Below are positions 27,625 to 30,475 of a DNA stretch of 64,000 nucleotides, in pieces. The position numbers and the translations under genes were made by a program. The notes under the pieces were generated by a model, which worked only from the letters and a program-made list of their open reading frames with translations, did no database searches and had not been told where the DNA came from. The DNA comes from Mycolicibacterium mucogenicum DSM 44124. Its GTDB lineage: Bacteria > Actinomycetota > Actinomycetes > Mycobacteriales > Mycobacteriaceae. The number at the start of each line of letters is the position of its first letter. Within the stretch, counting starts at the first letter, position 1. The DNA lies in NCBI RefSeq assembly GCF_005670685.2, contig NZ_CP062008.1, positions 4,526,001 to 4,590,000 of the forward strand. The letters are read 5' to 3'.

Positions 27625-27739
27625 CACGAAAACGCCCCCGGCCCAACAGGACCGGAAGCGTTTCGTTGCAACTACCTAGTGGGCGTAACCGTGGTGGCCG
27701 TGCCCGTGATCGGCTTCCTCAGCCGCCTTGTCCACGACG
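27625..27739. repeat. Decayed copy of the groEL1 3' end (direct repeat, copy A)
   Basis: 115 bases matching 28805-28919 at 109 positions. On the minus strand it encodes the last 20 residues of GroEL1 (VVDKAAEEADHGHGHHGYAH against VVEKPAEEADHGHGHHGHAH) with the stop and the downstream hairpin. In this copy the terminator stem is damaged (CCGGAAGCG instead of CCGGGGGCG). Homology stops abruptly at 27739. Confidence 0.9.
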
Positions 27740-28804
27740 CTCAGGCCTCTTCTAAATCCGCACGGACGAAATCGAACGCGAAGCGATCCGCGCCTAAGGC
27801 ATGGACCCGGATGATCCGAAGGCGTTGGAAGCCATCGAAGTGGTGCGCTGTGAGCTGGAGCTACTGCGATCACCTGATCAGCAACCGGGACTGGTCACCA
27901 GAGCCAGACGATCGCATTGCGCCCACCCCTGCACGAGACCCACTGTTGGTCACTTTGGCAGTTCATACGGAAGTTCTCACCGTCGCACACTGCGCCAGGA
28001 ACAGTGGTACAGCTGACGGCGCCCGGTACCGATAGCGTTCGATAGCTCGTCGACAGCCCACCCGTCGACACATACGTGTTGAGTACGTTCCTGACGAACT
28101 GACACGAGGTCTCGACGGTGCCTCGACCAGCCCGCACGCCGCCGTTCGAATATCCGTTGTCGCAGGTCTGGTGAGATTGGCTAATGTCCGCCCCCGTTAC
28201 CAGCGGCGGAGGCGACGCCGGCCAACTATTTGGCGCGGCCTGCGCGGTCTGGCTTGAAGCCGCCGGAGTCGGCTTCTCCGGCGAAACTGGGTGCTGCCAA
28301 GCTAGGTACGCGATAACGGCGCTCGCCGTCGTGACCACAAACGTCGGTACTTCCCAGCTACCCACGCGCCACTCCCCCACATGCCACGACGAGATTGTGA
28401 CAGGCACGCGAGTGGCTGGCACGGAACTTCACAGAAATTACCGGCAAACAGAAGGCCCTGCAGCACAAGCGGAAAAGCCGCAACAGGAGACGCGATTGGG
28501 ACTATAGACGTCGCCCTGACGCTCCTGCCAGGCTATGGCGCACAGCCCGCCGATTCGGCTCCGCCTGTTGAAAACAGACCGCGTCGCCCAAGTGCGTAAC
28601 CTTTTGCAGCGCAGCTGATTTGGTTACTTGTCAAGCACCCAGGCTGGGAAGCCGTCCTGGTGGCTGTACAGCAATAACCACGAGATGGCGGCGTGGGCCG
28701 GCGAAACGCTCGCGTCGACCTACAACCCGCATCACGCAGCCGAGGCGTTCAAGGTCGGCGCAAGTTGTGCGGAGCGAGGCTTATTCGCAGAGACCGCCCC
28801 AAAA
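27740..28804. mobile_element. Putative remnant of an element inserted at the groEL1 3' end
   Basis: About 1.07 kb between two direct copies of the groEL1 tail. It holds one membrane-anchored protein gene on the minus strand and fragments without complete genes, including a short open stretch at 28628-28800 whose translation contains WWLYSNNHEMAAWAGETLA. No integrase or transposase gene is recognisable. The layout fits an integrated element that brought its own replacement of the target gene's 3' end and then decayed. A simple tandem duplication with inserted sequence is the alternative. Confidence 0.5.
27895..28422 (-). CDS. Membrane-anchored protein with Cys-rich extracytoplasmic domain
   Basis: Up to 175 residues: a transmembrane helix (PTFVVTTASAVIAYLAW), a Pro/Ala linker, and a C-terminal domain with TSCQFVRNVLNTYVS, six Cys and final CRGGRNAIVWLW. 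Domains with TSCxFxxNV and a terminal C-x-GG pattern recur in mycobacterial surface proteins and kinase sensor parts, as I recall. ATG 28422 gives a long polar leader; an internal GTG about 14 codons later is possible. It is the only plausible gene inside the scar. Confidence 0.5.
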   Translation of the reverse strand: MPATRVPVTISSWHVGEWRVGSWEVPTFVVTTASAVIAYLAWQHPVSPEKPTPAASSQTAQAAPNSWPASPPPLVTGADISQSHQTCDNGYSNGGVRAGRGTVETSCQFVRNVLNTYVSTGGLSTSYRTLSVPGAVSCTTVPGAVCDGENFRMNCQSDQQWVSCRGGRNAIVWLW

Positions 28805-28919
28805 CACGAAAACGCCCCCGGCCCAACAGGACCGGGGGCGTTTCGTTGCAACTACCTAGTGGGCGTGACCGTGGTGGCCGTGCCCGTGATCGGCTTCCTC
28901 GGCCGGCTTCTCCACGACG
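28805..28919. repeat. groEL1 3' end and terminator (direct repeat, copy B)
   Basis: The intact copy, continuous with groEL1. It differs from copy A at six positions, two of which preserve the terminator stem here. Offset between copies is exactly 1180 bases with no gaps. Confidence 0.9.
28810..28843 (-). terminator. groEL1 terminator
   Basis: AAACGCCCCCGG (28810-28821) pairs with CCGGGGGCGTTT (28832-28843) over a 10-base loop. On the minus strand it is followed by TTTTCGTGTTTT, a proper T-rich tract. Confidence 0.85.
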
Positions 28920-30475
28920 GCCGTCTCGGTCGTCAGGATCATCCGGGCCACCGAAGCGGCGTTGAGCACCGCGGACCGGGTTACCTTGGCCGGGTCGACG
29001 ATGCCGTCGGCCAGCAGGTCACCGTAGGTCAAGGTGGCGGCGTTGAAGCCCTGCCCGAGGGGCAGCTCGGACACCTTGTTCACCACGACCGAACCGTCCA
29101 GGCCGGCGTTGGTGGCGATCCAGTACAGCGGGGCCGACAGTGCCGAGGAGAAGACCTCGAGGCCGATCAGCTCGTCGCCGGACAGCGAGCCACGCAGGCC
29201 GTCCAGAGCGGTGCGAGCCTGGACCAGAGCGGCGCCACCACCGGTGACGATGCCCTCTTCCACCGCAGCCTTGGCGGCGGCGACGGCGTCCTCGACGGCT
29301 TCCTTGCGCTTCTTCAGGTCGGTCTCGGTGGCAGCGCCGACCTTGATGACGGCCACGCCGCCGGCCAGCTTGGCGAGGCGCTCTTCGAGCTTCTCGCGGT
29401 CCCAATCCGAGTCCGAGGCCTCGATCTCGCTGCGCAGCTGCGCCTTGCGGCCGTCGATGGCCTCGGCGGTGCCGCCACCGTCGACGATCACGGTGCTGTC
29501 CTTGGTGACGACGACGCGGCGGGCGGTGCCCAGCACGTCGAGGCCCGCCTCACGGAGCGTCAGACCCACGTCGGGGTTGACGACCTGGCCACCGGTGACG
29601 ACGGCGAGGTCCTCCAGGAACGCCTTGCGGCGGTCACCGAAGAACGGCGCCTTGACCGCGACGGCCTTGAGGGTCTTGCGGATGGCGTTGACGACCAGGG
29701 TCGACAGGGCCTCGCCCTCAATGTCCTCGGCGATGATCAGCAGCGGCTTGCCGGCCTGAGCGACCTTCTCCAGCAGCGGCAGCAGGTCGGGCAGCGAGCT
29801 GATCTTGTCGCGGTGCAGCAGCACCAGCGCGTCCTCGAGGACGGCTTCCTGGGAGTCGAAGTCGGTGACGAAGTACGCCGACAGGAAGCCCTTGTCGAAG
29901 CCGACGCCCTCGGTGACCTCGAGCTCGGTGTTCAGGGTCGAGGACTCCTCGACGGTGACGACGCCGTCGGCACCGACGCGGGTCATGGCCTCACCGACCA
30001 GCTCACCGATCAGTTCGTCGCGCGACGAAACGGTCGCGACCTGGGCGATGGCGGTCTTGTCGGACACCGGCTTGGCCGCGGCCAGCAGGGCCTCGGACAC
30101 CGCGTCGGCGGCCTTCGAGATGCCCGCGCCGAGCGCGATCGGGTTGGCACCGGCCGCGACATTGCGCAGACCGGCCTTCACGATGGCCTGGGCCAGCACG
30201 GTGGCGGTGGTGGTGCCGTCGCCGGCGACGTCGTTGGTCTTGGTCGCGACGGACTTGACCAGCTGGGCGCCCAGGTTCTCGAACGGGTCTTCCAGGTCGA
30301 TGTCGCGGGCGATGGTGACGCCGTCGTTGGTGACCTGCGGGCCACCGAAGGCCTTGGCCAGCACGACGTTCCGGCCGCGCGGGCCGATGGTCACGCGGAC
30401 TGCGTCGGCGAGCTTGTCGACACCGGCTTCCATGGCCCGGCGCGCAGCTTCGTTGAATTCAATGAGCTTGCTCAT
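28856..30475 (-). CDS. groEL1: 60 kDa chaperonin GroEL1
   Basis: 539 residues. The equatorial ATP site includes DGVTIARDI and AGDGTTTATVLA; the rest follows GroEL throughout. The C-terminus ends in the His-rich tail ADHGHGHHGHAH, which marks the GroEL1 paralogue, in contrast to the GGM tail of GroEL2. GroEL1 is a cytoplasmic folding factor linked to mycolic acid synthesis in biofilms in M. smegmatis. It follows groES after 79 bases and shares its CIRCE control. The Bxb1-type attachment site lies in its last 30 codons. Confidence 0.96.
   Translation of the reverse strand: MSKLIEFNEAARRAMEAGVDKLADAVRVTIGPRGRNVVLAKAFGGPQVTNDGVTIARDIDLEDPFENLGAQLVKSVATKTNDVAGDGTTTATVLAQAIVKAGLRNVAAGANPIALGAGISKAADAVSEALLAAAKPVSDKTAIAQVATVSSRDELIGELVGEAMTRVGADGVVTVEESSTLNTELEVTEGVGFDKGFLSAYFVTDFDSQEAVLEDALVLLHRDKISSLPDLLPLLEKVAQAGKPLLIIAEDIEGEALSTLVVNAIRKTLKAVAVKAPFFGDRRKAFLEDLAVVTGGQVVNPDVGLTLREAGLDVLGTARRVVVTKDSTVIVDGGGTAEAIDGRKAQLRSEIEASDSDWDREKLEERLAKLAGGVAVIKVGAATETDLKKRKEAVEDAVAAAKAAVEEGIVTGGGAALVQARTALDGLRGSLSGDELIGLEVFSSALSAPLYWIATNAGLDGSVVVNKVSELPLGQGFNAATLTYGDLLADGIVDPAKVTRSAVLNAASVARMILTTETAVVEKPAEEADHGHGHHGHAH
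28901..28948. other. Bxb1-type attB site within groEL1
   Basis: From memory, phage Bxb1 inserts in groEL1 of M. smegmatis at a site of about 38-48 bases with central GT. The segment here differs from that remembered 38-bp site at only four positions, all silent in the coding frame. Central dinucleotide would be 28923-28924. Repeat copy A loses homology four bases before it. Confidence 0.65.

What the first reader, a model, noticed from the sequence alone, without database searches (positions are those of the whole stretch)
27625..28948. Duplicated groEL1 tail marks a Bxb1-type attachment scar
A 115-bp direct repeat carries the last 20 groEL1 codons and terminator. The outer copy is decaying while the inner one is intact. 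Homology stops four bases from the centre of the site that matches the remembered Bxb1 attB at 34 of 38 positions. This fits a serine-integrase element that replaced the gene end so as to keep groEL1 functional, then lost most of its DNA. The bases after the break (CTCAG) resemble my recollection of the Bxb1 attP arm, weakly.
Basis: partly seen in the sequence, partly recalled or inferred. Interest (0 to 1): 0.75.

Follow-up and report, generated by a model that had tools for sequence, protein, structure and literature searches.

The report
Mobile-DNA scar at groEL1 gene end
A mobile element once inserted at the end of a mycobacterial chaperone gene and left a spare copy of that gene end behind; in related genomes the same spot is filled again and again by phages that carry their own replacement gene ending, and by small units with one or two genes.

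Summary
The 115-bp duplication is real (27625-27739 / 28805-28919, 95%). Two close sister genomes have one uninterrupted tail and a third has a different insert, so the window holds an insertion at the Bxb1-type site of groEL1. Its inner end is a truncated gene resembling a DUF1508 gene that abuts the inner groEL1 tail of a serine-integrase element at this site in Mycolicibacterium litorale. The scar reading is supported. Two details are not: the inner copy is native-type, not phage-type, and CTCAG is not a demonstrable attP arm.

Beyond the window: attP of all seven phage records examined, Bxb1 included, encodes an in-frame His-rich GroEL1-like ending. Five of five integrase-bearing loci have a phage-type inner half-site; 19 of 20 loci without integrase have a native one. 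The latter often hold several tails separated by units with one or a few genes. One cupin gene is 93-94% identical between hosts whose groEL1 is 82% identical, so it moved. The boldest reading is an integron-like cassette system run by serine integrases; how units form and move is inferred.

The parts
28856..30475 (-). groEL1, intact, 539 aa, His-rich ending ...EKPAEEADHGHGHHGHAH
   Evidence: (Cpn60_TCP1, E 1.3e-70)
28805..28919 (+). Inner copy of the repeat: groEL1 ending, stop and terminator-like hairpin (coding strand is minus); native attB type
27625..27739 (+). Outer copy of the repeat: displaced, decaying groEL1 ending and hairpin
28905..28942 (+). Bxb1-type attB (38 bp around the central GT at 28923-28924), both half-sites native
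   Evidence: extent taken from the 38-bp attB length given in PMC3642061 (passage)
27740..28804 (.). Insert, 1,065 bp, lower GC, no integrase found; damaged outer junction at 27739/27740
27751..27816 (+). Remnant of the start of a small gene; similar DNA in G060 (82% over 66 bp, not at groEL1) and L037 (77% over 48 bp)
27895..28422 (-). Open frame of 175 aa with no relatives found; gene status uncertain
28619..28804 (+). Truncated gene resembling the DUF1508 gene next to the inner tail in L035 and L032
   Evidence: 49% over 55 aa to L035, 57% over 30 aa to L032; DNA 82% over 78 bp and 74% over 116 bp; L035 gene = PF07411. The fragment alone hit only PF24184 below its cut-off
26290..27600 (+). 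Carboxylesterase gene flanking the outer copy; adjoins groEL1 directly in the empty sisters

Best explanation
The duplication is the footprint of a serine-integrase element (prophage or prophage-like) that recombined at the central GT of the attB in the 3' end of groEL1. Such elements carry, in the half of attP upstream of the integrase gene, an in-frame GroEL1-like C-terminus, stop and terminator-like hairpin, so integration swaps the last ~20 codons for the element's own and pushes the original ending outward. In this genome the element then lost its integrase, its outer attP arm and most other genes, leaving part of a gene from its inner end. Shown: the insertion, its place, empty and differently filled sister sites, the shared end gene, and the tail encoded in attP of related phages and elements. 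Inferred: that this element had its own integrase, and that the inner tail later went back to native type, most simply by gene conversion from the outer copy, which would rebuild attB and trap the remnant.
For: Empty sites in G332 and G380 and another insert in G206, with groEL1 97.8-98.0% identical in protein. Both window tails align to the one sister tail. Integrase-bearing elements at the same core in L032, L033, L073, L083 and Nocardia panacis L093. The truncated gene beside the inner tail matches the gene that abuts the inner tail in L032, which has an integrase, and in L035, which does not. In-frame GroEL1-like endings in attP of 7 of 7 phage records examined. Lower GC of the insert.
Against: No integrase, no attP arm and no hybrid attL or attR remain in the window. 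The inner tail is native type, which needs an extra step. Homology stops four bases short of the GT. The end-gene match is short, and the fragment alone does not reach the DUF1508 model. The 175-aa frame has no phage relatives.
Confidence: 0.75

Rival explanations
1. Cassette model. The unit arrived without its own integrase, as outer attP arm, cargo and native-type groEL1 tail. A prophage at the site recombines its inner junction (attR) with an upstream attL instead of its own, so it leaves carrying the unit in between; it integrates elsewhere with that unit; later precise excision of the phage leaves the unit plus a rebuilt attB. Repetition builds arrays.
For: 19 of 20 loci without integrase have a native inner half and the outer junctions I could read are mostly native-left with attP-right, as predicted. 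L032 shows the predicted intermediate: a glyoxalase unit directly outside an integrase-bearing element. In 10 of 15 cargo genes on the groEL1 strand the stop is close to the core (printed gap at most 58 bp). One cupin unit moved between lineages.
Against: No circle, free cassette or phage carrying a cassette was seen; the five viral loci returned showed none. The window's end gene ties it to a prophage end instead. Some array units begin with what looks by eye like a worn integrase start (L034 third unit, L075, L080), which fits decay. Gene conversion explains native inner halves too.
Confidence: 0.15
2. Plain duplication of the gene end by illegitimate or homologous recombination, with unrelated DNA between the copies and no site-specific recombinase involved.
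For: Both copies are of the native lineage (95% to each other, 90-97% to sisters) and no attP arm remains at 27740.
Against: Many genomes show the break at the same core with attP-type arms, and some with integrases; the arm pattern occurs 31 times against 3 for its reversed control, and all 10 exact matches lie beside groEL1.
Confidence: 0.07

Closest known systems
Bxb1 and related groEL1-integrating serine-integrase mycobacteriophages
   Same: Same host gene, same core with central GT, same attB type; relatives' integrases are 54-61% identical to phage integrases of this group. attP also encodes a GroEL1-like ending.
   Different: The window has no integrase and no hybrid junctions. The integrase-bearing elements here use another attP half-site (GGCTTAC / GATTGCAGCC-like) than Bxb1 or Severus. 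Reviews describe Bxb1 integration as inactivating groEL1 (passages, PMC9262239, PMC8092301).
PAISt island of Streptomyces turgidiscabies (bacA 3' end copies)
   Same: Copies of a gene 3' end divide the island into modules that excise separately (passages, PMC4057263).
   Different: Tyrosine recombinase, very large modules, 8-bp palindrome; here a serine integrase and units of about 0.5-3 kb.
Integrons (recalled)
   Same: Tandem compact units of one or a few genes beside a recombination site.
   Different: Here the recurring site is a coding gene end and the only recombinase seen is a serine integrase. I did not search for IntI or attC.
SCC elements at rlmH (recalled)
   Same: Serine recombinases, insertion at a gene 3' end that stays intact, tandem elements, some without recombinase.
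   Different: Recalled only; no sequence comparison was made here.

Membership tests
Bxb1-type serine-integrase element (window copy) | Insertion at the groEL1 attB core | tested here: met
   Empty sister sites and shared core in relatives; the window junction itself stops 4 bp short
Bxb1-type serine-integrase element (window copy) | Own large serine integrase gene | tested here: not met
   tblastn with the L033 integrase finds none in the window
Bxb1-type serine-integrase element (window copy) | Hybrid attL and attR at the two ends | tested here: not met
   Outer arm lost, inner site native on both sides
Bxb1-type serine-integrase element (L032, L033, L073, L083, L093) | Integrase, outer B-P' and inner P-B' half-sites at groEL1 | tested here: met
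   in L083 the integrase lies about 1.9 kb inside the outer junction
attP-encoded GroEL1 tail | In-frame GroEL1-like ending with stop upstream of the integrase gene | tested here: met
   7 of 7 phage records
Integron-like cassette array | Several compact units in tandem at one site | tested here: met
Integron-like cassette array | The same unit in unrelated hosts | tested here: met
   One cupin unit only; other shared cargos fit descent
Integron-like cassette array | Site-specific excision and integration of single units | not testable with these tools
   Needs an experiment
Integron | IntI tyrosine integrase and attC sites | not tested
   No search was made

The most novel reading that the evidence does not exclude
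The 3' end of mycobacterial groEL1 is the entry site of an integron-like cassette system run by Bxb1-type large serine integrases: phages carry attP inside a recoded GroEL1 tail so that the chaperone stays whole, pick up small gene cassettes by excising between their own attR and an upstream attL, and leave them behind with a rebuilt attB, so that cassettes pile up next to groEL1.
Probability: 0.35. Interest if true: 0.9.

Novelty: new variant of a known kind. Interest (0 to 1): 0.72.

Why it matters
Bxb1 is a standard genetic tool, and its groEL1 insertion is cited as a serine integrase disrupting a host gene. If attP carries a GroEL1 ending, integration swaps the ending rather than simply cutting the gene, and lysogens make a phage-coded His-rich tail that may alter copper binding or biofilm functions. 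If the arrays are mobile cassettes, mycobacteria would have a gene-capture site comparable to an integron but built on a different class of enzyme, and existing Bxb1 tools could test it directly.

Tried and rejected
The whole insert against phages gave only terminator and capsid-gene scraps, and the groEL1 tail weak scattered hits. The 175-aa frame has no relatives at E<=1e-3. Cyclase units looked like cassettes at first, but the cyclase also lies beside groEL1 without a second tail in several genomes, so they are weak evidence. The CDGP and cupin units shared by L034 and L071 were dropped as transfer evidence: their divergence is about that of groEL1 or greater. CTCAG as an attP arm was rejected. 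The M. litorale integrase alone found no viral contig; of five viral loci found with the alignment, three have a tail-like match just upstream of the integrase and none shows a cassette. Of five genome loci found with it, three have a tail beside the integrase, one (L094) has none, and one (L095) begins at the integrase.

Limits of the counts. The six loci were chosen because they showed extra tails, and the 20 were picked by eye from the listed hits (15 of 20 have two or more tail matches), so neither gives a prevalence. In the one-mismatch search 19 of 31 places lie within 14 kb of groEL1; of the other 12, G207 and G319 had no tail within 1.5 kb, G039, G064 and G207 lie far from groEL1 by coordinates, and the rest were not examined. 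L080, L084 and L086 were left out of the half-site count: groEL1 is not in their stretches. L076, L082 and L089 are in it on a single tail plus a nearby arm match. L037 has an integrase fragment outside its outer tail. In L093 the groEL1 body is not in the stretch. Against a transfer reading: in three cupin pairs (L081-L133, L081-L143, L133-L143) the cupin is more diverged than groEL1.

Papers: passages only of PMC9262239, PMC8092301, PMC3642061, PMC10654092, PMC7433156, PMC2884959, PMC11277187, PMC3076238, PMC12884075, PMC4057263, PMC12424338, PMC5940133. Others were seen only in search listings. Mageeney 2020 is not held. Kim 2003 and Ojha 2005 were not looked up.

Full report
Observation. 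A 115-bp direct repeat at 27625-27739 and 28805-28919 (95%) carries the groEL1 ending and a terminator-like hairpin. groEL1 (28856-30475, minus strand) uses the inner copy; the outer lies beside a carboxylesterase gene. Between them are 1,065 bp of lower GC with no integrase.

Sister genomes. In G332 and G380 groEL1 is 97.8 and 98.0% identical in protein and adjoins the esterase orthologue with one tail. Both window tails align to that one tail (inner 93.1 and 96.9%, outer 90.0 and 93.8%). G206 has a different insert of about 2 kb, with only the hairpin of an outer tail left. Seven further relatives with the esterase have about 0.1 to 4 kb between it and groEL1; in two of them (L119, L121) a cyclase gene is part of that stretch. 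The site is thus used repeatedly, though not every size difference is an insertion.

What sits there when intact. A genus search (148 genomes) showed several with extra groEL1 tails. Reading six of them gave 12-kb elements in L032 and L033, each with a serine integrase just inside the outer junction (Pfam Resolvase, Recombinase and zinc ribbon). Further integrase-bearing loci are L073, L083 and Nocardia panacis L093; in L083 the integrase lies about 1.9 kb inside. M. houstonense (L086/L091) has an integrase beside an outer tail, but its inner end was out of reach.

The tail is carried in attP. At the inner junction of these five loci the left half-site reads GGCTTAC. In the four where GroEL1 could be translated it ends EKVS... 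where the others read KPAE, KPVE or similar (L072 is the other exception). Free phages do the same with another half-site: 7 of 7 records examined (Severus, BabyBack, Wheeler, JC27, SpikeBT, DrFeelGood, Bxb1) encode an in-frame ending upstream of the integrase on the opposite strand, such as ETAIVEVVPSDDGADHGHGHGHHHH in Severus and ETAVVDQTNHEDTGHHGHTH in Bxb1, then a stop; tail-model scores are 24.6-34.2 bits. The records were taken from the best integrase hits, Bxb1 by accession. A passage in PMC3076238 says Ojha et al. found that changing the last 18 residues of GroEL1 causes a biofilm defect, so an altered ending is in part known; the same paper replaced the last eleven residues, His-rich part included, and biofilm still formed. 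I found no statement that phage attP encodes a His-rich replacement in the listings or the passages.

Arrays without integrase. A pattern for the outer attP arm (one mismatch allowed) occurs at 31 places in 26 of 396 genomes, against 3 for the reversed pattern. All 10 exact matches lie within 14 kb of groEL1, as do 19 of all 31. Many of the chosen loci hold several tails; L034 has six, two of them partial. Between successive tails, 25 units under 3 kb were listed, the window included. Cargo found by Pfam includes glyoxalase, cupins, CDGP, DUF1330, an FAD oxidoreductase, a YefM/ParE-type pair, a SpoIIAA-like protein, a zinc dehydrogenase, a thioesterase and a DsbA-like protein. Of 19 cargo genes measured, 15 lie on the groEL1 strand; in 10 of the 15 the printed gap between core point and gene edge is at most 58 bp, three values being negative because the frame runs into the site. 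Units are small, so some closeness is expected.

Half-sites. Five of five loci with an integrase between the tails have a phage-type inner half; of 20 without, 19 have a native one, L072 being the exception. Fisher's test on these counts, which I entered by hand, gives 1.1e-4, but loci are not independent and were not sampled at random. Outer and inner half-sites of one genome often resemble each other (identical over 32 bases in L036), which fits gene conversion or exchange within a species.

Transfer. One cupin gene occurs in 27 of 297 genomes. Of 20 loci fetched, 8 adjoin a groEL1 tail and 12 do not, one of these on a short contig. Between L072 and four loci of another clade (L074, L132, L134, L138) the cupin is 92.9-94.2% identical in DNA while groEL1 is 81.5-82.6%. 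Between L074 and L072 the match covers the attP-arm flank (87.5% over 64 bp) and the gene (92% over 536 bp), with about 100 bp extra in L074. Three other pairs show the opposite, cupin more diverged than groEL1. Other shared cargos (CDGP, cupin of L034/L071, cyclase, DUF2510) show no excess similarity.

The window in this light. Its insert ends at the inner tail with a truncated gene that matches the DUF1508 gene of L035 (49% over 55 aa) and the corresponding gene of L032 (57% over 30 aa). Both of these stand directly before the inner tail. I therefore read the window unit as the worn inner end of such an element, whose inner tail went back to native type, rather than as a clean cassette. The native tail is the step I cannot show.

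Limits. Nothing here shows recombination in action. Loci are related by descent, many were picked by eye, and few have species names.

Noticed in passing
L033 3563-16098; L032 3116-15671: The 12-kb elements carry a tail tape-measure protein (PHROG 305, both) and in L033 a small-terminase-like and a replication-initiation-like protein; no capsid gene turned up among the ten proteins scanned (not all frames were). They may be phage satellites.
   Followed up: partly
L033 13230-15556: Next to the inner junction lies a 618-aa protein with colicin-DNase and WHH domains, followed by a DUF6985 protein; possibly a toxin-immunity pair like those reported beside mycobacterial prophage integration genes.
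   Followed up: no
L130 2840-2990 (Bxb1): Bxb1 attP encodes a short GroEL1-like ending (ETAVVDQTNHEDTGHHGHTH) opposite to the integrase gene; no gene is annotated there in the record.
   Followed up: yes
L035 6241-6804: A unit beside groEL1 holds a frame that by eye resembles ribosomal protein uL23 with an N-terminal extension.
   Followed up: no
L088 3-5380: Three adenylate/guanylate-cyclase-like genes in a row, one of them between groEL1 tails.
   Followed up: no
L093 9840-21376: Nocardia panacis shows the same arrangement: integrase beside an outer tail and a phage-type inner tail about 11.4 kb away.
   Followed up: partly
L085 (reverse strand) 3940-18203: Two groEL1 tails 14 kb apart with no Bxb1-type integrase detected and ordinary-looking chromosomal genes between them.
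   Followed up: partly
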